In this document: piece by piece, positions 5,006 through 41,375 of the stretch | Numbering within the stretch: position 1 is the first letter of the stretch | Layout: the number at the start of each line of letters is the position of its first letter | Assembly: GCA_017616015.1 (NCBI GenBank) | Contig: JAFZYY010000006.1 | Span: 124,001-188,000 of the forward strand | DNA: 64,000 nt | Direction: 5' to 3' | From: Alphaproteobacteria bacterium | GTDB taxonomy: Bacteria > Pseudomonadota > Alphaproteobacteria > CAAGCB01 > CAG-977 | Made by a program: the position numbers and the translations under genes | The notes under the pieces: generated by a model | What the model saw: only the letters and a program-made list of their open reading frames with translations | Told to the model about the DNA's origin: nothing | Databases searched by the model: none

Positions 5006-6703
5006 ATGCCTTTACCTGCAAAAACAAAACAAGGAAATGCATCGCATGCCGCAGGATCAGGAGGAGCAACTCCGTCCTCTGCCGGCGGAAAATCCGCGTC
5101 CGCAAAAGCGGCACCGAAGAAAAGTTCTGAAGTCCTCAACGAACTTTTTGCGAACAGTGTATGCATTACGGCCCCCAGAGGCTCTTTTCCGGTAAAAGAC
5201 GATACGCGAACTTTACTGGCGTTATTCGATAACGGCCGGTTTCTGGTCAACTCCGAACATAAATTCGACGGCCGCGTTTTAAGCTTTGAAGTGTTGGCTC
5301 GCAAAAAGAAACTGCAGGTAAACAAAGCCGAATATGTTCCGCCCAACCTGATCCGCGCTATTTATGACCGCGCCGAGAAGGAAGCGCCCGAAGAAGTCCC
5401 TGAAGAAACAGGCAGCGCAGCCGATCTGGATCAGCTGCAAATGCAAAAAGACTACGTCGCCGTTCTGTCCAAAGCGGCGGCGGTCAAAGTTTCCGACGTT
5501 CACGTCGTCGTCGGATCCCACAAAACGCAGATTTATTTCCGACAAAACGGTATGATGCAGGTCGTTTTGGAAAACACGAAAGAATGGGGAGAAGCATTCG
5601 TGCGCGCAGCTTTCGCTTCTTCCGATATTTCCGACGCGAACTATGCGCAAAACGAATATCAGGCGGCGCAAAAAATCGGCGACGCGCCGTTGCGCGGTTC
5701 AAACGGAAAATTAAGATTGCCTAAATTAGTGCTGGGGGTTCGTTTGCAATTCAACCCGATCGCCTTCGGAACGCGCTATCTGGTCATGCGTTTGCTTTAT
5801 GCCGATGAAGACCCCGATAACGCGGGCGATTTGACGGCTCTGGGGTATACGCAACGCGAAGCCGATATGTTCTACCGTCTGCGCGCCGTACCGATTGGCA
5901 TTATTATCGTTGCGGGGCCGACAGGTTCCGGAAAATCGACGACGTTGCAACGCAATATGATCTCCCTTTTGCAGGAACGCAACTACGAACTGAACCTGAT
6001 TACCGTGGAAGACCCGCCCGAATACCCGATTCCCGGCGCGCGCCAAATGCCTGTGACAAACGCGAATACGGAAGCGTTAAAAGAACAGGAATTTACAAAA
6101 GCTCTGGCGGCTTCTCTGCGTTCCGACCCGGACATGCTGATGATCGGGGAAATCCGTACTTTGTCTTCCGCGCAATTAGCTTTTAAGGGTGCCTTGTCAG
6201 GCCACGGCGTGTGGTCGACTCTGCACGCGAACTCGTCTCCGGCGGTTATCATGCGTTTCCGCGATATGGGCGTCGAAACATTCAAGCTGATTGACCCCGA
6301 AATTATGAAAGGCATGGTTTCTCAACGTTTGTTCCGCCGCGTTTGCCCGCATTGCCGTATTCCGGTTTCGCAAAAACCGGATCACCCGACCGTGCAGCGC
6401 TTGCGCAAAGCTTACGGCGATTTCGGTATGGAACAGGCTTTTCTGCGCGGTCCGGGGTGCCCCGAATGCGGCGGAAACGGCTGTAAAGGCAGATGCGTCG
6501 TCGGTGAAATTCTGTTGCCGGACGCCACGTTCCTGAACCTGTTGGTCAACGGGGAAACAAAAAAAGCGATTGACTATTGGACAGGCGATTTAGGCGGACG
6601 TACAATGAAAGACTGTTCGGTGGAACGCATGCTCAACGGTTTGATTGATGCTGAAGAAGTCGAGCGTTGGTGCGGTCTGTTGGACGAAAGACCCGTTTAC
6701 TAA
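5006..6703 (+). CDS. pilQ: Type IVB pilus assembly ATPase PilQ (GspE/TcpT family)
   Basis: Secretion ATPase expected to drive pilus polymerisation at the inner membrane. It has 565 residues. The Walker A motif GPTGSGKST is near residues 303-311, the Walker B region DPDMLMIGEIR near 374-384, and the His-box-like GVWSTLHAN near 400. A Cys-rich zinc element (CPHC about 446, then CPECGGNGCKGRC about 485-497) is like that of GspE-type ATPases. A Ser/Ala/Gly-rich N-terminus precedes a PilB-like N-terminal domain. AAGGA stands before the ATG. In R64 the gene called pilQ is this ATPase, not the unrelated secretin of the same name in type IVa pili. Confidence 0.9.
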   Translation: MPLPAKTKQGNASHAAGSGGATPSSAGGKSASAKAAPKKSSEVLNELFANSVCITAPRGSFPVKDDTRTLLALFDNGRFLVNSEHKFDGRVLSFEVLARKKKLQVNKAEYVPPNLIRAIYDRAEKEAPEEVPEETGSAADLDQLQMQKDYVAVLSKAAAVKVSDVHVVVGSHKTQIYFRQNGMMQVVLENTKEWGEAFVRAAFASSDISDANYAQNEYQAAQKIGDAPLRGSNGKLRLPKLVLGVRLQFNPIAFGTRYLVMRLLYADEDPDNAGDLTALGYTQREADMFYRLRAVPIGIIIVAGPTGSGKSTTLQRNMISLLQERNYELNLITVEDPPEYPIPGARQMPVTNANTEALKEQEFTKALAASLRSDPDMLMIGEIRTLSSAQLAFKGALSGHGVWSTLHANSSPAVIMRFRDMGVETFKLIDPEIMKGMVSQRLFRRVCPHCRIPVSQKPDHPTVQRLRKAYGDFGMEQAFLRGPGCPECGGNGCKGRCVVGEILLPDATFLNLLVNGETKKAIDYWTGDLGGRTMKDCSVERMLNGLIDAEEVERWCGLLDERPVY

Positions 6704-6721
6704 AACAAATGAGGGAAGAAA

Positions 6722-7807
6722 ATGGCAGATAGATTTAGTCTGGCGGAACTTAACCGATATTACGCCATGATCATATGCAGAATGAGCCACGGCACACGGA
6801 TAAAAATTTACCGTAAGCTGATTTCATTGTTGCGGAACCGGTTTTCTTTGATGGACGCTTTGGATCGAATTCGCGGCATTATTACAAATGAAGGACGAAA
6901 TCCTGATGAACCGATGGCATTGGCAGTTTTATACTGGACTCGATCGTTGCAAAACGGTAATCCGTTTTCCGTTGCTTTGGAAGGGTGGGCGCCGGCCAGC
7001 GAACGACTGATGCTTTCCGTCGGTGACGTGTCGCACTTGGAAGGCGCGCTGGAAAACCTGATTAAAGTGACCGAAGGCACGAAAAAAATGAAAGAGCCTC
7101 TGATCAGCGCTATCAGCTACCCGATGTTTTTGTCCATGATGGTCGTTTTGATTATTTACGCGATCGGCGCTTACATGGTTCCGCCGATGATGAACGCCGC
7201 GCCGAACACACGTTGGACGGGAAGCGCGAAAGATCTGGTTTCTTTATCCGTTTGGATCCAGAAAAACTGGGCGATTGCATTTGCGTCTTTACCCACACTA
7301 TTTGTCATTATTTATTTAACGATGGGACGATGGAAAGGAAAAACGCGTGCGTTTTTTGAAAACATTCCGCCCTGGTCTTTGTACCGGATTTTCGTCGGCG
7401 TGACGTGGCTTTTGGCAATGGCAGCTCTGGTACGCGCGGGAACTCCTGTGTCGCAAGCTTTGCGTTCCTTGCGTCACGACGCCAGCCCTTACCTGCTTTA
7501 CCGGATTGACAGCGCTTTGGTCTATGTCAACAACGGTGATAACTTAGGCGAAGCTTTGATGAAAACAGGATTGGGTTTCCCCGATAAAGAAATCGTCGGC
7601 GACTTGCGTATTTATTCTGAAATGGATAACTTTCAGGAAGCTTTGGATCAAATGGCAAACGAATGGCTTGAAGACAGTGTGTCAAGCATCGAGAAAAAAG
7701 CCAGTGTTCTGAATATGATCGCGACACTGTTTGTTTCCGGCACGATTGCCTGGGCGGTTATGGGAACCTTCGCCATGCAGGATCAAATCACGAAAGCCAT
7801 GGGCTAA
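6722..7807 (+). CDS. pilR: Type IVB pilus inner-membrane platform protein PilR (GspF family)
   Basis: The 361 residues match the GspF/PilC platform family. Two cytoplasmic helical domains each precede membrane segments: hydrophobic stretches lie near residues 127-150, 172-195 and 330-355. PilR anchors the ATPase and the growing pilus. It follows pilQ by 18 bases with GAGGGAAG before the ATG. The operon ends here at a strong terminator. The major pilin (PilS), a PilT-like transglycosylase and a prepilin peptidase, which follow pilR in R64, are absent from this window and must lie elsewhere if the pilus is functional. Confidence 0.88.
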   Translation: MADRFSLAELNRYYAMIICRMSHGTRIKIYRKLISLLRNRFSLMDALDRIRGIITNEGRNPDEPMALAVLYWTRSLQNGNPFSVALEGWAPASERLMLSVGDVSHLEGALENLIKVTEGTKKMKEPLISAISYPMFLSMMVVLIIYAIGAYMVPPMMNAAPNTRWTGSAKDLVSLSVWIQKNWAIAFASLPTLFVIIYLTMGRWKGKTRAFFENIPPWSLYRIFVGVTWLLAMAALVRAGTPVSQALRSLRHDASPYLLYRIDSALVYVNNGDNLGEALMKTGLGFPDKEIVGDLRIYSEMDNFQEALDQMANEWLEDSVSSIEKKASVLNMIATLFVSGTIAWAVMGTFAMQDQITKAMG

Positions 7808-7820
7808 AAAGCTTAAAGCA

Positions 7821-7860
7821 AAAAGAAGACCTTCGCCTGACGGCGAAGGTCTTCTTTTTT
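7821..7860. terminator. Strong bidirectional terminator between pilR and pepF
   Basis: The stem AAAAGAAGACCTTCGCC / GGCGAAGGTCTTCTTTT is nearly perfect over 17 pairs with a TGAC loop. T's follow on the plus strand and a mirrored A-run lies on the other side. It separates the convergent pilR and pepF genes and can stop both. Confidence 0.9.
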
Positions 7861-7873
7861 AATATCGGCAGGA

Positions 7874-9742
7874 TTAACGGCCGCCCTCTTTAAGAGCTTT
7901 TTTCGCCGCCAAAGACGGAGCTGCTTTGTCCGTTTGCTGTCCTTTGTTTTTGTTCTTGTTCATACCCAACTGTTCCGTCAGGACTTCCAGTTCGTCAACA
8001 AATCCTTTGACGACACTCAATCCTTTCTTCCAGAAATCCGACTTGGAAGCGTCCAACCCGAAAGGTTTCAGCATTTGCTGATGACGTTCTGAACCGCCTT
8101 TGGCCAGCATTTCCATATACTTCTTCGGGAAATCCTCGACTTTTCCTTCCTCGTACACTTTATACAGCGAATTGACCAGACAATCCCCGAACGCGTATCC
8201 GTACACGTAGAACGGCGTATGAACCATGTGCGGCACAGTCGCCCACATCGCGTTCGAATTTTCATCGTTCTTCACCGAAGCGCCCAAAGCTTCATTCTGC
8301 GTCTTTGTCCAAATACCGTTCAACCGTTCCGGAGACAATTCGCCTTCCTTGCGGCGCGCGGTATGAACTTCCGTTTCAAAGCGGTGGAAAGCTATCTGAC
8401 GAACGGAAGAATTGATCATTGACCCCGTTTTTTCGGCCAGCATCGCGAAACGCTGTTTCGGATCCTTTTCGTGTTTAAGCATATACTTAAACGTCATCAT
8501 TTCGCCGAAGATTGACGCCGTTTCGGCCAGCGTGATCGGCGTGTTGGATTTCAACATGCCCTGCTCGCGCGCCAAATACTGATGCACGCCGTGCCCCAAT
8601 TCATGCGCCAGCGTCATCACATCGTTCGTCGTCCCCATGAAGTTCAGCATGATATACGGGTGAGCCGACGGAACCGCGGGGTGCGAATAAGCGCCGCCTT
8701 CCTTGCCTTCCTTCGGCGCAACGTCAATCCATTTATTATCGAAAAACTTTTTGCCGATTTCCGCCATTTCCGGAGAAAATTCGTTATACGCGGCAAGAAC
8801 GATGTTTTTCGCCTCCTCCCATGTATATTTCTTTTCCGGCAGATCGGGAATAGGCGCGTTGCGGTCGGAATAATCCAACTGATCAACCCCCAGCCAATCC
8901 GCTTTCATTTTATAATAGCGATGAGAAATGTCGGCATGACTGTCCACCACGGAATCAACCAAAGCGTCAACGACTTCGTCCTCCACCTGATTTTCGATAT
9001 TGCGGGCGGAAATCGGGCGTTCATAGCCGCGCCATTCGTCTTCAATCTGTTTGTCTTTAGCCAATGTATTGGTGATCAACGCGAATGTGGACATATTTTC
9101 CTTCATCACGCGATTGATTTCGGCACAAGCTTCATGACGCGTTTCGATATTCGGATCGGACATTTTAGCCATCGCTTCCGGCTCCGTCAGTTCTTCGCCG
9201 CCGATATTAAAGCGCAGTCCCGCCATTGTTTCGTCAAACAAACGGTTCCAGGCCGTCGCGGAGCTCATGGATTTGTCGTGCAGCAATTTTTCCATGTTTT
9301 CCGGCAACATGTGATCGCGGGCGGCGCGCACGTTTTTAATCCACGGCTCATATTTCTGAGCCATCGGAGAAGTCATCTTTTCGGCCAGCTGTTCATCTGT
9401 CAGGCCATTTAATTCCAATTCAAAGAACAGCATTTTCCCGGCAACGTCATTCGCTTTTTCCTGCACGTTCTGATAGAACGTTGAAATTTCCGGATCATTC
9501 ATGTTTGTCGAATGCATCATGTAAGAATAAGCGTCCAAACGCCCCAGCGTTTCGCTTAATTTTTCATATTCTTCTATTGACTTGCCGAATTCGTCGGGAG
9601 AAGCGCCGGCCAGCTTGCCTTTATAATGAGTTTCGAAACGCATGGCGCCGGCGGAAACGGCCGCCATATCCTTCTTCAGCTCAGGAGAATCCATTCCCGG
9701 ATACAAATCATTCAAATTCCACTTCGGCATTTCTTCAGACAT
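7874..9742 (-). CDS. pepF: Oligoendopeptidase F, M3 family zinc metallopeptidase
   Basis: Cytosolic M3B peptidase that cleaves short peptides. The 622 residues are normal for the family. The zinc site HELGHGVHQ (HExxH) is near residues 387-395, with the downstream glutamate region ETASIFGEMM. The N-terminal oligoF domain (MPKWNLNDLYPGMDSPEL) is typical. The C-terminal tail is Lys/Asn/Gln-rich. AAAGGAG precedes the ATG on the minus strand. It appears to be a single-gene unit facing the pilus operon. Confidence 0.93.
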   Translation of the reverse strand: MSEEMPKWNLNDLYPGMDSPELKKDMAAVSAGAMRFETHYKGKLAGASPDEFGKSIEEYEKLSETLGRLDAYSYMMHSTNMNDPEISTFYQNVQEKANDVAGKMLFFELELNGLTDEQLAEKMTSPMAQKYEPWIKNVRAARDHMLPENMEKLLHDKSMSSATAWNRLFDETMAGLRFNIGGEELTEPEAMAKMSDPNIETRHEACAEINRVMKENMSTFALITNTLAKDKQIEDEWRGYERPISARNIENQVEDEVVDALVDSVVDSHADISHRYYKMKADWLGVDQLDYSDRNAPIPDLPEKKYTWEEAKNIVLAAYNEFSPEMAEIGKKFFDNKWIDVAPKEGKEGGAYSHPAVPSAHPYIMLNFMGTTNDVMTLAHELGHGVHQYLAREQGMLKSNTPITLAETASIFGEMMTFKYMLKHEKDPKQRFAMLAEKTGSMINSSVRQIAFHRFETEVHTARRKEGELSPERLNGIWTKTQNEALGASVKNDENSNAMWATVPHMVHTPFYVYGYAFGDCLVNSLYKVYEEGKVEDFPKKYMEMLAKGGSERHQQMLKPFGLDASKSDFWKKGLSVVKGFVDELEVLTEQLGMNKNKNKGQQTDKAAPSLAAKKALKEGGR

Positions 9743-32855: not shown

Positions 32856-32943
32856 GGAGAGGGGACAGAGTGGTCGAATGCTTCCAGACCCGAACCGAAG
32901 CGAAAGCGAAAGTGTCGGAGCGAAGCGAGGACAAATCTGTTGA
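32856..32943 (+). pseudogene. Broken tRNA-Ser copy with insertion in the anticodon loop
   Basis: The first 26 bases repeat the start of the intact tRNA-Ser at 32982 with two differences. CCAGACCCGAA then matches the anticodon arm, but about 38 bases rich in GCGAA/GCGAG follow inside the loop before AATCTGTTGA resumes. The variable arm, T-arm and acceptor 3' half are missing. About 40 bases upstream of each copy are also alike, including a hairpin that ends 10 to 15 bases before the shared GTATGAATATGG. It looks like a tandem duplication that decayed. Confidence 0.75.
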
Positions 32944-32981
32944 TGGCGTCAGCCATAAAGAGACGCCGACGGTATGAATAT

Positions 32982-33074
<93 letters not shown>

Positions 33075-33261: not shown

Positions 33262-34278
33262 TTACTTTTCCGCTTTGTTGCCGTTCAGTATGCTGATAAC
33301 GATTTGTTTCATCGTTTCCATTTCTTCCGGTTTGCTTTCGGCGATCAAAACGGTCAGCGCGAACAAAGTCGCATTATCGATCACAGGCACGCCGGCACGA
33401 TACAAAATGCCGTTCCTGTCCAGAAAATAAAGAAAGCACGCCGCGCCGATACGTTTGTTTCCGTCCGAAAAGCCGTGATTCTTAACCACAAAATACAGCA
33501 ACATAGCGGCTTTTTCTTCCAGCGTCGGATAACAATCCCGTTCGCCGAATGTTTGGTATATCTGGTTCACGGAACTGTCAAAGCTGTCATCTTTCGGATT
33601 GGCAAAAACAGCGGAAGCGAACGCCGGTTTCATTTTGTCAATGACGGATAAAAATTCCTCTTTTGTAACAATGACCGCCGGTTTTACGGTTTTGCCTTTG
33701 GTATCAAGCGTTTTATTGTCATAGTCGTCAAGCAAATCCAACCCTGCGGCAAAATCCGCCATTAACGCGCTGAATTTTTTCGCCTCGTCCAAGTTGTCCG
33801 CCTGATGTTCGATACTGCGGTTTAACAGCTTGATCGCGTTTTGCAACTGCGCGGCTTTGTTTTTTTGTTCTTGCAGCCGCTTTTCGTTTAGCGCATAACC
33901 GTCAACGAGGTATTGATGTAAAACATTTGTCGCCCATTTACGGAATTGAGTGGCGACTTTTGAAGACACCCTATACCCGACCGCCAGAACGACGTCCAGA
34001 TTATAGTATGGAATCCGTCTTTTGACTTCGCGGGAGCCTTCTTTTTGAACTTGTGCAAAAAATGCACACGTTGATTCTTTATCGAGTTCTTCTTCATCAA
34101 AGATATGCTTGATATGGCGTTGAATGTTGGAACGGTCTTTACCGAAAACATCGGCGATTTTCTCGGCACTTAGCCATAAAGTATCGTCTTGTTGAACGAC
34201 CTCTATGTTATTTATGCCGTTGCGACCGGTGTAGATAACGATTTTTCCTTTTGATAAATCCGTATTTTCGCCCTGCAT
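33262..34278 (-). CDS. RhuM-Doc fusion (RhuM N-terminal domain with Fic/Doc C-terminal domain)
   Basis: The 338 residues fall in two parts. The N-terminal two thirds match the RhuM virulence-protein family, with VVQQDDTLWLSAEKIADVFG, RSNIQRHIKHIFDEEEL, and YYNLDVVLAVGYRVSSKVATQF. The C-terminal part is a Doc-like Fic domain with NHGFSDGNKRIGA near residue 270. Fic/Doc enzymes transfer AMP or phosphate to proteins such as EF-Tu. GGGAGGA precedes the ATG at 34278; the open frame runs 29 codons further upstream without support. It is the first gene of the accessory region and is divergent from the WYL regulator. Confidence 0.88.
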   Translation of the reverse strand: MQGENTDLSKGKIVIYTGRNGINNIEVVQQDDTLWLSAEKIADVFGKDRSNIQRHIKHIFDEEELDKESTCAFFAQVQKEGSREVKRRIPYYNLDVVLAVGYRVSSKVATQFRKWATNVLHQYLVDGYALNEKRLQEQKNKAAQLQNAIKLLNRSIEHQADNLDEAKKFSALMADFAAGLDLLDDYDNKTLDTKGKTVKPAVIVTKEEFLSVIDKMKPAFASAVFANPKDDSFDSSVNQIYQTFGERDCYPTLEEKAAMLLYFVVKNHGFSDGNKRIGAACFLYFLDRNGILYRAGVPVIDNATLFALTVLIAESKPEEMETMKQIVISILNGNKAEK

Positions 34279-34404
34279 TTTCGTCCTCCCGATTTGCACC
34301 AAGTCTGTTCGCAAATCTTTATCCCGCTCTGACGGTATTATCAGCAATCGCAGGACAGATTGCAACAGCGCAAGTCATTCCGATAAAGAAATACATTTTC
34401 CATC

Positions 34405-34423: not shown

Positions 34424-34450
34424 CTTATGGTAAGCAGAAAGGAGAACGGC

Positions 34451-35410
34451 ATGGCATACGAAAAAACGGAACAGTTATTGGAATTGGCAACAATGATGCA
34501 GGCGAACCGCGAGGGTGTTTCTTTAAACAATATCTGCGAGAAATTCGGCGTTTCCCGTCGCACGGCGGAGCGAATGCGCGATATGATCAAAATCCGCTTT
34601 CCGCAGACAAAGGAAACAATGGACGACAACGGTTTCAAGCGTTGGTATATCCCGCAAGGCACTTTACGCGATTTCATTCAGTTTTCGGCGGAAGAAGTCG
34701 CTTTACTGGAAACGCTTAAAACGCTGTTGGAAAAAAACAATATGGCGGACAAGACGGAAACGCTGGAACGCCTGACCGATAAAATCAAAGCCAACGTCAA
34801 GCCCGATGTCATGCGGCGACTGGAACCGGACGTCGAGGTTTTAATGGAAGCCGAGGGTTTTATTTGCAGACCGGGGCCGAAATTGAAAATCAACACGGCT
34901 ATCATATCGGTTATCCGTCAGGCGATTTTGGAAAATCATCATATCAGAGTTCAATATGTCAGCCGCTCCACCGGAAAAAGAAGCCGGAACATCCTTATTC
35001 CTTACGGTTTGTTATACGGTGAAAGGAATCACTATCTGATCGCGAAGCACGCGAACGGATACGCTTCCGGCGCATTGCGTTCGTTTATTTTAAGCAACAT
35101 CAAGAAAGTTGAAATCCTGACGGACACCGTGTTTGAACAAGGCGATTTCGACTTGCGGAAGTATGCGGAGGAATCTTTCGGCGCGTTTCACGAAGAACCT
35201 TTTGACGTTGAATGGCTGTTTGATGCCGAGGTTGCCGAAGACGCAAAAAAATATGTGTTTCACCCGTCACAAAAAGTAGTGGAAAACGAAGATGGAACGT
35301 TAACAGTCACCTTCCATGCCGGCGGACGGCGCGAAATGGATTGGCATCTTTACACATGGGGTGAACACGTCAAAGTGATTAAACCGGAAAACTGGAAAAA
35401 AGGAGAATAA
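34451..35410 (+). CDS. WYL-domain transcriptional regulator
   Basis: A 319-residue regulator. The N-terminal winged HTH contains NNICEKFGVSRRTAERMRDMI (about residues 25-45), and the WYL domain (about 155-220) contains IRVQYVSRSTGKRSRNI and YGERNHYLIAKH. A C-terminal WCX-like extension follows. WYL regulators often control phage-defence loci, sensing nucleic-acid ligands. The start at 34451 has AAAGGAG upstream; the frame opens 8 codons earlier. The putative nuclease gene starts 4 bases downstream, a strong sign of one operon. Confidence 0.9.
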   Translation: MAYEKTEQLLELATMMQANREGVSLNNICEKFGVSRRTAERMRDMIKIRFPQTKETMDDNGFKRWYIPQGTLRDFIQFSAEEVALLETLKTLLEKNNMADKTETLERLTDKIKANVKPDVMRRLEPDVEVLMEAEGFICRPGPKLKINTAIISVIRQAILENHHIRVQYVSRSTGKRSRNILIPYGLLYGERNHYLIAKHANGYASGALRSFILSNIKKVEILTDTVFEQGDFDLRKYAEESFGAFHEEPFDVEWLFDAEVAEDAKKYVFHPSQKVVENEDGTLTVTFHAGGRREMDWHLYTWGEHVKVIKPENWKKGE

Positions 35411-35413
35411 AAA

Positions 35414-36355
35414 ATGTGTGATGTAACAATTTACAGAAATAATTTGAAAACAAGTCCTGTAAAAAATGGACATATTAGCCGAGAAGATCTTTTTAATCAT
35501 TGTAACGAAAAGTTAATCATAGGTGGAGGATGGGGATTTTCTAAAGGAAAAGAGCCAAAAAATTATCAAGATGCGATTAACATAGCAAAAGAAGAATTTC
35601 CAAAGAATACAGGATGTAAAAAGCTAATAAACGCTTTGTCGGAAATGAAAGAAAACGATTTAGTTTGGACACGATGTGGCGGCAATTATTATCTGTGTCG
35701 TGTTAAATCGGGATGGGAATATTGTTCTTCCGAACAAGCTAATGAATTTGATATGCATCAAATCGCAAAAGTTTATGATTATGTTAAAATAGGGGCTGAA
35801 GATAAAATTCCGACAAAAGTTCTCAACTCATTCAGAAGTCCATTAACATTACAAAAAATCGATAGTGATATTATATGCAAATTGTCAAAACATCTTTATA
35901 ATAAAAAAACTAATGAATATATATATAAAGATGCTCGTAACTTTGAAATTGGAGAAGAAACATTTTTTGAATTTGTCCATCCAAAAGAAATGGAATGCCT
36001 TGTAGCTCTATATCTTCAAAAAGAAAAAGGATATCTTCTTTATTCAGATACAAACAGAAAATCAACGCCGGTATATGAGTATGTTTTAGTAAAAGAAGAC
36101 GAAGATAACCACTTAGCATATGTCCAAGTCAAAACAGGAGATGAATCATTAGATGCTACTAAAACGGATTACAAAGAATTGACAAAGAACAAACAAGATA
36201 AGGTTTATCTTTTTACCGTTGACGGCTCTCACTATGGAGAGGTTGAAGGAAAACAGAATAATATTTTTTTTATAAGTAAAAAAGAAATCGTTGAATTCGT
36301 ATATAAGTATCCTCGAATTATTCCTGAAAAAATACGGGATTGGCTAAAGAAATAA
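35414..36355 (+). CDS. Putative modification-dependent nuclease: PUA/EVE-like domain plus PD-(D/E)XK-like domain
   Basis: The 313 residues appear to hold two domains. Around residues 70-140, MKENDLVWTRCGGNYYLCRV followed by a W-x-Y pattern and IPTKVLNSF resembles PUA/EVE-like base-sensing domains. From about 185, an acidic HPKEMECLVALYL helix, strand YEYVLV and strand YVQVKTGDE (a Q-x-K core like Mrr) suggest a PD-(D/E)XK nuclease fold. Together they would make a type IV-like restriction enzyme, but this is an inference. The gene is visibly more AT-rich than its neighbours (11 of 60 G/C at 35881-35940), suggesting recent transfer. It is coupled to the WYL regulator gene. Confidence 0.6.
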   Translation: MCDVTIYRNNLKTSPVKNGHISREDLFNHCNEKLIIGGGWGFSKGKEPKNYQDAINIAKEEFPKNTGCKKLINALSEMKENDLVWTRCGGNYYLCRVKSGWEYCSSEQANEFDMHQIAKVYDYVKIGAEDKIPTKVLNSFRSPLTLQKIDSDIICKLSKHLYNKKTNEYIYKDARNFEIGEETFFEFVHPKEMECLVALYLQKEKGYLLYSDTNRKSTPVYEYVLVKEDEDNHLAYVQVKTGDESLDATKTDYKELTKNKQDKVYLFTVDGSHYGEVEGKQNNIFFISKKEIVEFVYKYPRIIPEKIRDWLKK

Positions 36356-36374: not shown

Positions 36375-36400
36375 GCTTCGGATTTTTCTGAAGCCTTTTT
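36375..36400. terminator. Terminator between convergent island genes
   Basis: GCTTC-GGATTTTTCT-GAAGC is followed by CTTTTTATC. It lies between the putative nuclease and the small convergent gene. Confidence 0.75.
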
Positions 36401-36402
36401 AT

Positions 36403-36744
36403 CTACTTTGTCCGATAATGCGGATCACGGCAGAAACGGATTGTAAAATCTTCCGGTGAAATGCCGATTTTTTGCAATATCGTTTGAACGGCATCGGGAT
36501 CGGATAAAATTTTGATGTCGGCATAAAAGAAGTATGTCGCCTTGCTGTCGTCCCAAATCAGTCGACCGCGCGGAAATTCGTCATATTCGGTCAAAGCCAG
36601 ATCGGGATATTGCCTTTTGACATCCTCCCATGATTGAACATGACTGCCCGAATAATCGGCGATATTCAACGGCGGCTCGACAGGGCTTTCCTCGCTGAAG
36701 ACGATAGTATGATTCGATGTTTTCCAAAAGATGGCTGTTTTCAT
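36403..36744 (-). CDS. Unknown 113-residue protein
   Basis: Not recognised. A small acidic soluble protein from MKTAIFWKTSNHTIVFSEES to FTIRFCRDPHYRTK, with no membrane segment. CGGAGC precedes the ATG. The open frame extends 73 codons further but that part runs into the exonuclease gene on the other strand and is not used. Its upstream region is shared with exonuclease-ankyrin gene 1, so the two may be co-regulated. Confidence 0.7.
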   Translation of the reverse strand: MKTAIFWKTSNHTIVFSEESPVEPPLNIADYSGSHVQSWEDVKRQYPDLALTEYDEFPRGRLIWDDSKATYFFYADIKILSDPDAVQTILQKIGISPEDFTIRFCRDPHYRTK

Positions 36745-36789: not shown

Positions 36790-36808
36790 TGTCAATTTTT
36801 GACGTGTC
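36790..36808 (+). promoter_or_regulatory. Island motif, site 2, overlapping a promoter of exonuclease-ankyrin gene 1
   Basis: TGTCAATTTTTGACGTGTC, with the internal inverted repeat GTCAA-TTT-TTGAC. TTGACG within it can serve as a -35 box, with CGATAA 18 bases downstream as a -10 box. Binding here would block RNA polymerase. Confidence 0.65.
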
Positions 36809-36850
36809 TGTGTTGTATGTTTCGATAAAACGCAAAAAAGGAGTTTTATC

Positions 36851-38233
36851 ATGAAACGTGAAATTGTATTAGACACTGAAACAACCGGCCTTTCGGCTGA
36901 AAACGGAGATAAACTCGTTGCCATCGGCGCGGTCGAACTGATTGACGGCAAGCAGACAGGCAAGACCTTTTATGCGGAAATCAATCCGCTTCGTCCGGTT
37001 CCGCAGGACGTCGTCCGTATTCACGGACTGACAGACGAAAAATTAAAAGACAAACCGACTTTTCCGCAGATCGCGCCATCTTTTCTGGATTTTATCGGGG
37101 CTTCGCCTCTGGTCATTCACAACGCGCCGTTTGATATGGCTTTCCTGAACGCCGAACTGACGATGGCAGGATTTGCGCCGATCGCCGAAGAAAGAATCGT
37201 CAATACCCTGCCGATAGCAAAGCGATTGCGTATCGGAAGCTCCGTCAGTCCGGATGCTTTGTATAGCAGTGTGTTTAAAAGAATCGACATATCTTCGAAA
37301 AAACGCCCTTTGCCCAATGCTTTGCTCGGCGCGCAATTACTGGCGGGAGTATATGTGTATCTGCGAGAAAAGGAATTCGAAAAGTCTTTGAAAACGGGAA
37401 AATTCGACGATATAAAACGGCTGTATGAAGACGAAGCGCATATTTACACGAATCTTGCAACTGTTTTGACAATAGCGGCATACTTCAAGAGATGGGATAT
37501 TTTCAAGTGGCTTATCGATGAAAAAGGAGTCGACGTCAACGCACGGAACGATCGCGGCGAAACGCCTTTGATGATGGCGGCAAACGAAGGTAATCTTGAT
37601 ATTTGCAAGTGGCTCGTCAATGAAAAAGGAGCTGACATCAACGCACGGAATGATGACGGCGAAACGCCTTTGATGTATGCGAACTGTTTCCAGATTGTAA
37701 CCTTTTTAGTGGAAGCGGGAGCAAATGTGAATGAGGAAAACGAAGAGGGCAAGACGGCTTTGAATTACGCCATATATGGAAATAATTTTGATACCTTTCG
37801 TTATTTGGTAGAACACGGCGCGGATATCAGGAGAAAATGGTGGATATTACGCGACACTCTTGTTCTAAGCAACACTAAAAATTGTAATAAGATGGCAAAT
37901 ATGCTTCTTGATTTAGGGGTGGATATCAACGCAGATTTTGGTTGGGACACAACGATTATGCAGGCATGCTATGAAGAAGGCCATGAGGAAATCCTTCAAA
38001 GATTGATCGCTTTGGGCGCAAAAGACATTGTCGGCGGCATTACAGCAGCCGTTGAAACGGGACATCCGGAATACCTTGATATTTTGTTGCCGCTTGTGCC
38101 GGACGTGAACAACCTGATCGACCGCAAGGGCAAACCGGTTGATTTGCTTTCAATCAGCCCGCGCAAATACATAACGTCTTACCTGATTGCTCATGGTGTC
38201 CGTCCGAAAAATGAAACGGACGAAACAAAATAA
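36851..38233 (+). CDS. DnaQ-like exonuclease/ankyrin fusion 1, exonuclease site degraded
   Basis: The 460 residues begin with a DEDDh exonuclease domain (residues 1-175), followed by a linker and about seven ankyrin repeats (about 205-455, with signatures such as GETPLMMAANEGNLDICKWL). Exo I (LDTETTG) and Exo II (HNAPFDMAFL) are intact. In Exo III, where the paralog reads LHGALLDAQLLAEVY, this protein reads LPNALLGAQLLAGVY, so both the catalytic His and the Asp are lost. It may bind but not cut DNA or RNA, or bind the paralog's partner. Start: AAGGAG before the ATG. Leader and domain are close copies of the next gene. Confidence 0.9.
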   Translation: MKREIVLDTETTGLSAENGDKLVAIGAVELIDGKQTGKTFYAEINPLRPVPQDVVRIHGLTDEKLKDKPTFPQIAPSFLDFIGASPLVIHNAPFDMAFLNAELTMAGFAPIAEERIVNTLPIAKRLRIGSSVSPDALYSSVFKRIDISSKKRPLPNALLGAQLLAGVYVYLREKEFEKSLKTGKFDDIKRLYEDEAHIYTNLATVLTIAAYFKRWDIFKWLIDEKGVDVNARNDRGETPLMMAANEGNLDICKWLVNEKGADINARNDDGETPLMYANCFQIVTFLVEAGANVNEENEEGKTALNYAIYGNNFDTFRYLVEHGADIRRKWWILRDTLVLSNTKNCNKMANMLLDLGVDINADFGWDTTIMQACYEEGHEEILQRLIALGAKDIVGGITAAVETGHPEYLDILLPLVPDVNNLIDRKGKPVDLLSISPRKYITSYLIAHGVRPKNETDETK

Positions 38234-38257
38234 CATCAACCGCGTTCGGAAAGAGAA

Positions 38258-38278
38258 CACGTCAGTTTTTGACGTGTC
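38258..38278 (+). promoter_or_regulatory. Island motif, site 3, overlapping the promoter of exonuclease-ankyrin gene 2
   Basis: CACGTCA-GTTTT-TGACGTG is a perfect 7-base inverted repeat and contains the 19-base motif. TTGACG is a likely -35 and CGATAA, 18 bases on, a likely -10. The leader to the start codon is nearly the same as that of gene 1. Confidence 0.75.
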
Positions 38279-38322
38279 TGTGCCGTATGTTCCGATAAAA
38301 CGCAAAATACGGAGTTTTTACC

Positions 38323-40518
38323 ATGAAACGTGAAATTGTATTAGATACCGAAACGACCGGTCTTTCGGCTGAAAACGGGGATAAAATTGTCGCCATCGGC
38401 GCGGTTGAACTGATTGACGGCAAGCAGACGGGCGAAACCTTTTATACAGAAATCAATCCGCTTTGTTCGGTTCCGCCGGAAATCTCCGACATTCACGGAC
38501 TGACGGACGAAAAATTAAAAGACAAACCGACTTTCCCGCAGATCGCACCATCTTTTCTGGATTTTATCGGGGCTTCGCCTCTGGTCATTCACAACGCGCC
38601 ATTCGATATGGCTTTCCTGAACGCCGAACTGACGGCGGCGGGATTTGCACCGATTGCCGAAGACAGAATAGTTGACACGTTACCAATAGCAAAGCGGTTG
38701 TATCCCGAACAGCCCGTCAATCTGGACGCTCTATGTGAAAAATTCGACATATCTTTGGAAAAACGGACGTTGCACGGAGCGTTGCTTGACGCGCAATTAC
38801 TGGCAGAAGTTTATGTGCATCTGCGAGAAAAAGAGTTCAGAAAGGTTCTGGAAACGGGAACTTTCGAAGATATAAAAAAGCAGTATGAGGATGAAGCGCA
38901 TATTTACACCCCTTTTGCAAACGTTTTGACTGCTTCTGCATGGTTCGGGCGTTCGGATGTTTGCCGATGGCTGATCAACGAAAAAGGCGTGGATGTTAAC
39001 GCCGTCGATAAGTTCGGAAGGACGGCTTTAATGAAAGCGGCGGAAAGAGGATATTTCGACTTGTGTCAATGGCTCGTTGATGAAAAAGGTGCTGATGTCA
39101 ACGTCAAAAATTGCTGCGGCATAACGTCTTTGATGTATGCCGCAAGGAACGGTCATCTCGACGTTTGCCAATGGCTCGTCAAAGAGAAAAAAAACGAAGT
39201 CAAAACAACCGACAACGAGGGCAAGACCGCTTTGATGTGGACGGCTTTGTGCGGTCGTTTTGAGGTTTGCAAATGGCTCGTTAATGAAACAGGTGAAGAC
39301 GTCAACGCGGCAGACAAGGAAGGACAATCTGTTCTGATCCATGCCGTTCAGGGCGGACACCTTAATGTATGTAAATGGCTGATTGATGAAAAGAATGTTG
39401 AAGTCGGCGACAAAAACATTCTAATAGAAGCCGTGGCGCATGAACATTCGGATATTTGCCGGTGGCTTGTCAATGAAAAAGATGCAGATGTCAACGCCAT
39501 CGATAAGTTCGGAAGAACAGCTTTGATATGGGCGGCAAAGAAAGGAATGCTTGATATATGTAAACAGCTTGTTCTTGAAAAAGGAGCAGACATTAACACA
39601 AAAGACTGCGATGGCAATACGGCTCTGATGTTTGCCATATGGATCGGAGCTTTTGAACTTGTGACTCTTTTGGTTAAAGCGGGTGCAGACGTGAACACGG
39701 AGAATAATAACGGTCAGACACCTCTGGGGGAAGCTACGGCACTCGGATACCTTGATATTGCCAAACTGCTGATTGAAACAGGTGCTGATGTTAACACACC
39801 GGGCAGAAACGGAGAAACGGCTTTAATATCTGCGGCACATAACGAATATCTTGATTTTGTCAATCGATTGATCGAAGCTGGTGCCGATGTCAACGCGAAA
39901 GACAACGACGGTCGGACGGCTCTGATGTTTGCGACTGCGCGGCGAAGCGGAAATCCTGATATCCTCGAAAAACTGATCGAACACGGTGCCGACGTAAATG
40001 CAAAGGACAACGAAAATCGGACAGCTCTGATGTTCGCGGCTTCACAGTGGTGCGAGACCACCGATATCATTAAACGGCTGATTGAATACGGCGCGGATAT
40101 CAATGCGATTGATGAGGACGGTTGGACTGCGCTGATATCTGCGGCACTTGGCGGATACCTTATGAATGTTGAGCAGCTGATCGAAGCGGGTGCCGATGTC
40201 AATACGAAGGACAAAAACGGAGAAACGGCTCTGATGATGGCGTCAGATGAAGGACATTTCGACGTTGTTAAAGCTTTAATTAATTCGGGAGCTAATCTTG
40301 ATGCACAGGACAAGGACGGCGATACGGCACTTATGTCTGCGGCTTTGATCGGAAACCTTGATATTGTCGAACTGCTTATTGAAGCCGGTGCCGACTTGAA
40401 CGCAAAGAATAAAAGCGGAAAAACGGCACTGAATATAGCGGAATATGAAGAACACTCCGATGTTATCAAAACATTAATTAAACATGGCGCAATCGCAAAT
40501 ACAAAGGACGGAAATTAA
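38323..40518 (+). CDS. DnaQ-like exonuclease/ankyrin fusion 2, exonuclease site intact
   Basis: A 731-residue paralog of the previous protein. The exonuclease domain (about 1-175) has all DEDDh motifs: LDTETTG, HNAPFDMAFL, LDALCEKFDIS and LHGALLDAQLLAEVY, the last being almost the DnaQ text. About 16 ankyrin repeats follow (about 205-725), with a regular GADVNAKDNDGRTALMFA pattern. The repeats should form a long solenoid for protein binding. The proofreading-like domain is likely an active 3'-5' exonuclease. Neither the polymerase nor a helicase is attached, so the role is unknown; defence or DNA degradation are candidates. Confidence 0.92.
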   Translation: MKREIVLDTETTGLSAENGDKIVAIGAVELIDGKQTGETFYTEINPLCSVPPEISDIHGLTDEKLKDKPTFPQIAPSFLDFIGASPLVIHNAPFDMAFLNAELTAAGFAPIAEDRIVDTLPIAKRLYPEQPVNLDALCEKFDISLEKRTLHGALLDAQLLAEVYVHLREKEFRKVLETGTFEDIKKQYEDEAHIYTPFANVLTASAWFGRSDVCRWLINEKGVDVNAVDKFGRTALMKAAERGYFDLCQWLVDEKGADVNVKNCCGITSLMYAARNGHLDVCQWLVKEKKNEVKTTDNEGKTALMWTALCGRFEVCKWLVNETGEDVNAADKEGQSVLIHAVQGGHLNVCKWLIDEKNVEVGDKNILIEAVAHEHSDICRWLVNEKDADVNAIDKFGRTALIWAAKKGMLDICKQLVLEKGADINTKDCDGNTALMFAIWIGAFELVTLLVKAGADVNTENNNGQTPLGEATALGYLDIAKLLIETGADVNTPGRNGETALISAAHNEYLDFVNRLIEAGADVNAKDNDGRTALMFATARRSGNPDILEKLIEHGADVNAKDNENRTALMFAASQWCETTDIIKRLIEYGADINAIDEDGWTALISAALGGYLMNVEQLIEAGADVNTKDKNGETALMMASDEGHFDVVKALINSGANLDAQDKDGDTALMSAALIGNLDIVELLIEAGADLNAKNKSGKTALNIAEYEEHSDVIKTLIKHGAIANTKDGN

Positions 40519-40544
40519 AACGCGAAAAAATGGGGGATTCTTTC

Positions 40545-41375
40545 ATGACAATACATCTTTCAACGGGATTTGAAGAGCTTGACGCCGTAATAAACGGTTT
40601 GAACGGTGGGGAGCTTGTTTTAATCGGCGGACGCCCCGCAATGGGAAAAACGACCTTTGCGCTGAATATCGCTTTGAACGTAGCAAAAGGCTTGAAGGAC
40701 AAAGAACGCTCGGGTGTTGCTTTCTTTTCTATGGAACAATCTCTATCGCAACTGACGGGAAATTTTCTGTCGGCGATAACGCGGATCCCTTCCATGAAAA
40801 TCATAAAGGGAGAACTCACCGCGGACGAGTTTCAACGAATTTCCGAAGCGTCCGGAGATTTGGAAAAGATGCTGATTTATATCGACGATACGCCGGCTTT
40901 ATCGCCCGCCGCCTTGCGCGAGCGTTGCCGGAAAATAAAAGACGATCCCGAAAAAGGATTGAGGGTTGTTATCATCGACTATTTGCAACTGCTCAAAAGC
41001 GAAAAACATTCTTTGATGTTGCAAAGACTGAAAAAAATCGCCACGGAATTCGATGTGCCGGTTATTGTGTTATCCCAACTTGTGCGAACGATTGAAAACC
41101 GTAAAAACAAACGCCCGCGTCTGAGCGATATTCCGGCGTGTAAAGACTTGTCCGCTGTTGATAAAGTCCTGTTTTTATATCGGGAAAGCTATTATTTGGA
41201 ACTCAACATACCCGAACAAAGCGAAAATGAAACGGACGAAGAATACAGAGAACGCTTTTTTGAATGGAATGAACGCCTTTTAAGCACGGAAAACAACTAT
41301 GAAATCATCATCGCGAAAAATCCTGCCGGTCAGTGTGGAACGGTCAACCTGCGATTTAACGGAAAGCCGACATAA
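40545..41375 (+). CDS. Stand-alone DnaB C-terminal-like RecA-fold ATPase
   Basis: The 276 residues equal the C-terminal ATPase half of the replicative helicase, without the DnaB N-terminal domain. Walker A is GGRPAMGKTTFALN (about residues 26-39). Walker B is VVIIDYLQLL. VIVLSQLVRTIENRKNKRP matches the DnaB segment that precedes the arginine-finger region, but the DnaB LRESGSIEQDAD text is replaced by IPACKDLSAVDK. The start at 40545 has GGGGGA upstream; an in-frame ATG at 40530 is an alternative. It may load or translocate on DNA for island functions such as the adjacent exonucleases. Confidence 0.85.
   Translation: MTIHLSTGFEELDAVINGLNGGELVLIGGRPAMGKTTFALNIALNVAKGLKDKERSGVAFFSMEQSLSQLTGNFLSAITRIPSMKIIKGELTADEFQRISEASGDLEKMLIYIDDTPALSPAALRERCRKIKDDPEKGLRVVIIDYLQLLKSEKHSLMLQRLKKIATEFDVPVIVLSQLVRTIENRKNKRPRLSDIPACKDLSAVDKVLFLYRESYYLELNIPEQSENETDEEYRERFFEWNERLLSTENNYEIIIAKNPAGQCGTVNLRFNGKPT

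What the first reader, a model, noticed from the sequence alone, without database searches (positions are those of the whole stretch)
36851..40518. Tandem DnaQ-exonuclease/ankyrin fusions, one active and one dead
Two adjacent paralogs join a DEDDh exonuclease to ankyrin repeats (about 7 and 16). The second keeps every catalytic motif. The first has lost the Exo III His and Asp (LHGALLD becomes LPNALLG) while keeping Exo I and II. An active/inactive pair with long binding solenoids suggests a sensor and effector or an inhibitor pair. I know of no described system with this architecture.
Basis: partly seen in the sequence, partly recalled or inferred. Interest (0 to 1): 0.8.

Follow-up and report, generated by a model that had tools for sequence, protein, structure and literature searches.

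The report
Exonuclease–ankyrin pair, one copy dead
A bacterium (apparently an alphaproteobacterium) carries, in a small genomic island with defence-like genes, two side-by-side genes that join a DNA-proofreading exonuclease to long ankyrin binding scaffolds, one with an intact active site and one whose active site is broken; the pair is real and looks undescribed, but it was found in this one genome only and its role is not shown.

Summary
ORFs 36851-38233 (FUS1, 460 aa) and 38323-40518 (FUS2, 731 aa) are tandem paralogues: a DnaQ-type DEDDh exonuclease plus about 8 and 16 ankyrin repeats. FUS2 keeps all five catalytic residues. FUS1 keeps Exo I and II but has lost the Exo III His and Asp, has a 4-residue insertion there, and its modelled Exo III loop is unstructured; the rest of its exonuclease fold is still constrained, so it looks like a retained pseudo-exonuclease rather than a gene in free decay. 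The pair lies in a ~9 kb island, absent from the same tRNA-Ser site of a relative, with a WYL regulator, two PADLOC defence candidates (PDC-S02, PDC-S23) and a stand-alone DnaB-helicase domain without its arginine finger. No other DnaQ-ankyrin fusion was found in this order, in samples of its class and phylum, in 85k species' contigs, phages, plasmids (all with limited sensitivity) or the paper library. Best reading: an accessory exonuclease against mobile DNA with a dead regulatory partner; function is inferred only. The fused pair does not recur, although a relative has one intact plus two degenerate DnaQ copies beside another WYL gene.

The parts
36851..38233 (+). FUS1: 460 aa, DnaQ-type exonuclease domain (residues 1-~180, Exo III lost) plus 8 ankyrin repeats (residues ~202-447)
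37313..37330 (+). FUS1 degenerate Exo III motif: P155 (was His) and G160 (was Asp)
   Evidence: alignments
38323..40518 (+). FUS2: 731 aa, intact DEDDh exonuclease domain (residues 1-~170) plus 16 ankyrin repeats (residues ~198-720)
38773..38790 (+). FUS2 intact Exo III motif, H151 to D156
36796..36833 (+). 38-bp upstream element of FUS1, probable promoter region (TTGACG hexamer), duplicated with the gene
   Evidence: promoter role inferred, the consensus scan does not list it
38266..38303 (+). second copy of the 38-bp element, upstream of FUS2 (35/38 identical)
40530..41375 (+). stand-alone DnaB C-terminal ATPase domain (281 aa), 11 bp after FUS2; Walker A and B kept, arginine-finger motif lost (AKQRHG of host DnaB reads AKNPAG)
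34427..35410 (+). WYL-domain transcription regulator; 75% identical in G009, where it adjoins the DnaB-domain orthologue
35414..36355 (+). PADLOC defence candidate PDC-S02 (E 3.5e-80), 3 bp after the WYL gene
36403..36744 (-). 113-aa protein of unknown family, divergent from FUS1; relatives in five of 12 genomes of the order
33262..34365 (-). RhuM/Fic protein, PADLOC candidate PDC-S23 (E 1.7e-124)
32982..33072 (+). tRNA-Ser(CGA) at the left edge of the island

Best explanation
FUS2 is a working DEDDh 3'-5' exonuclease of the DnaQ (Pol III epsilon) type whose polymerase-binding tail has been replaced by a 16-repeat ankyrin solenoid that chooses its partner or target. FUS1 is a tandem copy that has become a pseudo-exonuclease: it keeps the fold and a shorter ankyrin arm but cannot cut, and most likely regulates FUS2 or competes with it for the same partner or DNA end. 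Both are cargo of a WYL-linked accessory island at tRNA-Ser and most likely act against phages or other mobile DNA by degrading or blocking 3' ends of replicating DNA. Shown: sequences, motif loss, fold predictions, constraint on the dead copy, island boundaries, defence-candidate neighbours. Inferred: exonuclease activity, target, the regulatory role of FUS1, and the role against mobile DNA.
For: FUS2 aligns with E. coli epsilon at E 4.4e-42 with all motifs and its model is confident. The genome has its own full-length DnaQ (235 aa with tail), so the fusions are spare copies, and they lack that tail. FUS1 is not in free decay: residues 1-120 show 16 nonsynonymous differences where about 46 are expected if one copy were neutral since the split (Poisson P about 2e-7), while residues 121-172 look neutral, with 12 changes on FUS1 against 4 on FUS2, many at near-invariant sites; compensating 1-base indels keep the frame. 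Flanking EAL and ABC genes and tRNA-Ser are at the same site in G001 with wholly different DNA between. Neighbours match PADLOC candidates PDC-S23 and PDC-S02. WYL regulators control defence loci: BrxR (PMC9122601) and CapW, whose CBASS operon also holds a DEDDh exonuclease, Cap18 (PMC9122588). WYL genes of this family often sit near ankyrin genes.
Against: No experiment, and no second instance of the fusion, so no conservation argument for the pair. PDC families are candidates, not proven defences. FUS1 and FUS2 each have their own upstream element and a terminator-like hairpin at 36375-36394 separates them from the WYL gene. A catalytic-dead Cap18 did not affect protection in the tested CBASS. 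The constraint on FUS1 may predate its loss of catalysis.
Confidence: 0.4

Rival explanations
1. Neutral or short-lived novelty: a spare DnaQ, perhaps phage-derived, gained ankyrin repeats (abundant in this genome), duplicated in tandem, and one copy is now decaying; the pair has no lasting selected role.
For: Fusion found in one genome only. Ankyrin matches are abundant in the genome (56 matches). Long branch of the pair in the DnaQ tree. The Exo III region of FUS1 evolves at a neutral-like rate.
Against: Residues 1-120 of FUS1 are constrained well below neutral; both reading frames are intact despite compensating indels; FUS2 keeps every catalytic residue.
Confidence: 0.3
2. Replisome mimicry: the island's DnaQ-type and DnaB-type proteins are partial, partly dead copies of alphaproteobacterial replication proteins that act as decoys or dominant negatives against a phage that recruits the host replisome, with the ankyrins as docking arms.
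For: The adjacent DnaB domain best matches the PRK09165 replicative helicase model and is 47% identical to the host DnaB, but lacks the N-domain and the arginine finger. Its orthologue in G009 (63% and 52% identical in two segments) has lost the Walker A lysine (MGIT), and two G010 relatives are truncated or degenerate. G011 has one intact and two degenerate DnaQ copies near a WYL gene in a prophage-like region with a terminase.
Against: FUS2 is fully intact, which a decoy would not need. G011's copies lack ankyrins and may simply be phage genes. The sample is small.
Confidence: 0.15
3. Secreted or host-directed effectors: ankyrin proteins of host-associated alphaproteobacteria are often delivered into eukaryotic cells, and these would be nuclease effectors.
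For: Ankyrin parts score against curated Dot/Icm ankyrin effector models, as ankyrin arrays generally do.
Against: All far below those models' cut-offs (for example 237.8 against 600); the N-terminus is the exonuclease domain itself; neighbours are defence candidates.
Confidence: 0.08

Closest known systems
DnaQ / Pol III epsilon subunit
   Same: Same DEDDh exonuclease fold and motifs (FUS2 to 1j53 E 4.4e-42; FUS1 model to 2gui, TM 0.85 by target length)
   Different: Polymerase-binding C-terminal tail replaced by ankyrins; FUS1 lacks Exo III; the genome has its own DnaQ
CBASS Cap18 with WYL regulator CapW (PMC9122588)
   Same: DEDDh exonuclease and WYL regulator in one defence locus
   Different: No CD-NTase or other CBASS core gene matched among the genes scanned here; no ankyrins are described for Cap18; Cap18 catalysis was dispensable there
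PADLOC PDC-S48 candidate
   Same: N-terminal DEDDh exonuclease (FUS2 E 1.7e-33)
   Different: Match stops at position 169 of 411; the rest of the model is not matched
Human RNase L (ankyrin sensor plus nuclease)
   Same: Works-alike only: ankyrin sensor joined to a nuclease; its sensor is among the structural matches of FUS1 (4g8k)
   Different: Different nuclease fold and domain order; no evidence of an oligoadenylate ligand
SaDinG, DnaQ-type exonuclease fused to a DinG helicase (PMC12345164)
   Same: DEDDh exonuclease fused to another module
   Different: Helicase, not ankyrin, partner; role in defence uncertain according to its authors

Membership tests
DnaQ Pol III epsilon subunit | All five DEDDh residues | tested here: met
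   Met by FUS2; not met by FUS1, which lacks H and D of Exo III
DnaQ Pol III epsilon subunit | C-terminal tail for the polymerase | tested here: not met
   Ankyrins follow the exonuclease domain in both; host DnaQ has a ~55-residue tail
DnaQ Pol III epsilon subunit | Curated equivalog score | tested here: inconclusive
   FUS2 215.9 against cut-off 222.7 (TIGR01406) but 208.7 against 196 (NF004316); FUS1 below both
PDC-S48 (PADLOC) | Full-length match to the model | tested here: not met
   Only positions 8-169 of 411 matched
CBASS Cap18 | CD-NTase and Cap6/Cap7 neighbours | tested here: not met
   None among PADLOC matches of the nine genes scanned
CRISPR-associated DEDDh | Neighbouring cas genes | tested here: not met
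   The PADLOC DEDDh model matches the exonuclease domain, but no cas operon gene was found among the nine genes scanned; the one Cas3c model hit is to the WYL protein
WYL defence regulator (BrxR/CapW type) | Represses the neighbouring defence operon | not testable with these tools
   WYL and WCX domains present; binding and repression need bench work

The most novel reading that the evidence does not exclude
An undescribed immune module in which an active DnaQ-type exonuclease and a selected pseudo-exonuclease, each on an ankyrin arm, work as an effector and regulator pair together with a degenerate DnaB-type ATPase: a defence built from altered copies of the cell's own replication proteins under a WYL regulator.
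Probability: 0.15. Interest if true: 0.8.

Novelty: new variant of a known kind. Interest (0 to 1): 0.5.

Why it matters
If the pair works as proposed, it shows how a proofreading exonuclease can be retargeted by a protein-binding solenoid and paired with a dead copy of itself, a design familiar from pseudokinases and RNase L but, as far as the library shows, not described for DnaQ. It also points to WYL-linked ankyrin islands in this alphaproteobacterial family as a place to look for new defence genes.

Tried and rejected
Recent copy of the genome's own dnaQ: not supported, since the pair branches outside the family's DnaQ clade on a long branch, although placement is unsure. FUS1 as a plain pseudogene: disfavoured by constraint in residues 1-120. 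DnaQ-ankyrin fusion in phages: no record covers 80% of FUS2; Wolbachia phage WO has a split DnaQ-like gene and separate ankyrin genes. Plasmids: none. Relatives of a degenerate G011 DnaQ in viral contigs: none. Tandem dnaQ pairs in L057 and L113 are both catalytically intact by motif, so not a precedent for a dead partner. The 38-bp element elsewhere: not in any other fetched locus. The 113-aa neighbour as an island-specific gene: weak, since in G004 and G007 it lies among apparent core genes.

Full report
Observation. Two tandem ORFs, 36851-38233 (FUS1, 460 aa) and 38323-40518 (FUS2, 731 aa), each encode an RNase_T/DnaQ-type exonuclease domain followed by ankyrin repeats. Their first ~170 residues are 81% identical and the duplication includes about 40 bp upstream of each start, with a 38-bp element found nowhere else in the window or in other fetched loci. 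FUS2 has the complete DEDDh set: D8, E10, D95, H151, D156. FUS1 has Exo I and II but P and G in place of the Exo III His and Asp, N in place of D118, and a 4-residue insertion; all 22 other DnaQ sequences aligned have the H and both Ds. AlphaFold2 gives FUS2 16 repeats at mean pLDDT 93.5 and FUS1 8 repeats at 87.2 with the Exo III stretch (about 130-155) at pLDDT near 50.

Is the dead copy just decaying? Pairwise dN/dS is 0.27 for residues 1-60, 0.07 for 61-120 and 0.49 for 121-172. With dS near 0.39, a copy evolving neutrally since the split would give about 46 nonsynonymous differences in residues 1-120; 16 are seen. Polarised with 22 outgroup DnaQs, changes in 1-120 are balanced (5 on FUS1, 4 on FUS2), whereas in 121-172 they fall 12 on FUS1 to 4 on FUS2 and hit near-invariant sites. 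The frame survives compensating 1-base indels. This fits a pseudo-exonuclease kept for its fold, but the constraint might predate a recent loss of catalysis. The Poisson test is simple and assumes a single split; synonymous divergence rises from 5' to 3' (0.34 to 0.61), so some gene conversion at the 5' end is possible.

Origin. The genome has its own full-length DnaQ on another contig, 58% identical to FUS2 over the exonuclease domain. In a tree of 100 DnaQ sequences the pair lies on a long branch outside the family's DnaQ clade; support is rough. The fusions lack the epsilon C-terminal tail.

Setting. Upstream are a RhuM/Fic protein (PADLOC PDC-S23, 1.7e-124), a WYL regulator and a PDC-S02 candidate (3.5e-80); downstream, 11 bp after FUS2, a stand-alone DnaB C-terminal domain. 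Relative G001 has the same flanks, an EAL gene (73%), tRNA-Ser(CGA) and an ABC transporter (84%), but entirely different DNA between them, so about 33.1-42.2 kb is island DNA specific to this genome in that comparison. BrxR-family WYL regulators lie beside phage-defence systems in about half of cases (PMC9122601), and CapW represses a CBASS operon that also contains the DEDDh exonuclease Cap18, though Cap18 catalysis was dispensable there (PMC9122588).

Recurrence. No other DnaQ-ankyrin fusion was found in the other 11 genomes of the order, in 385 class genomes by a junction query, in the listed top matches of 398 phylum genomes (list truncated), among the best 80 of 344 relatives in 85k species' contigs, or in the phage and plasmid collections. 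These searches favour close relatives, so distant fusions could be missed. Weaker parallels: WYL and the DnaB domain adjoin in G009 (75%, and 63/52% identity in two segments) and lie one gene apart in G010. The window's DnaB domain keeps Walker A and B but has AKNPAG where host DnaB has AKQRHG (that this is the arginine finger rests on established knowledge of DnaB); G009's has lost the Walker lysine. G011 has one intact and two degenerate DnaQ copies near a WYL gene in a region with a phage terminase. Of the 20 WYL places in the 12 genomes, 12 have an ankyrin ORF within about 3 kb; after merging orthologous loci it is about 7 of 14 locus types. No null model was computed for this, and accessory genes cluster anyway.

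Mechanism. Most likely FUS2 is an ankyrin-targeted exonuclease acting on foreign or replicating DNA and FUS1 its non-cutting partner; RNase L, whose ankyrin sensor appears among the structural matches of FUS1, is a works-alike, not a relative. Rivals are passing novelty, replisome mimicry and secreted effectors. None can be settled from sequence.

Organism. The record is unnamed. Alphaproteobacterial affinity is inferred from the nearest DnaQ sequences and from the DnaB model PRK09165.

Noticed in passing
window 33262-34365 (-): RhuM/Fic fusion matching PADLOC PDC-S23 (1.7e-124) next to tRNA-Ser; a separate defence candidate in the same island.
   Followed up: partly
window ~32860-32960: Broken second copy of the tRNA-Ser 5' part directly upstream of the intact tRNA-Ser, interrupted by a short GC-rich stretch; possible trace of events at this site.
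   Followed up: no
L163:10370-12388: Large double AAA+ ATPase beside the WYL and DnaB-domain genes of G009, with PADLOC IetA matches (6.1e-36).
   Followed up: partly
L164:5792-10936: Three DnaQ-like genes, one intact and two degenerate, near a WYL gene and a phage terminase in G011.
   Followed up: partly
L194 (G000:C34:40000-59999): Another accessory region of the same genome with two WYL genes, several ankyrin genes and two weak SprT-like proteins.
   Followed up: partly
L166:6913-7806 and L165:7896-8777: Further stand-alone DnaB-like domains in G010, one with degenerate Walker motifs, one truncated before the arginine-finger region.
   Followed up: partly
L247:3148-4188 and 5608-8065: In G001 a PDC-S02 relative, a relative of the 113-aa window protein and ankyrin ORFs lie within 5 kb, echoing the window's order.
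   Followed up: partly
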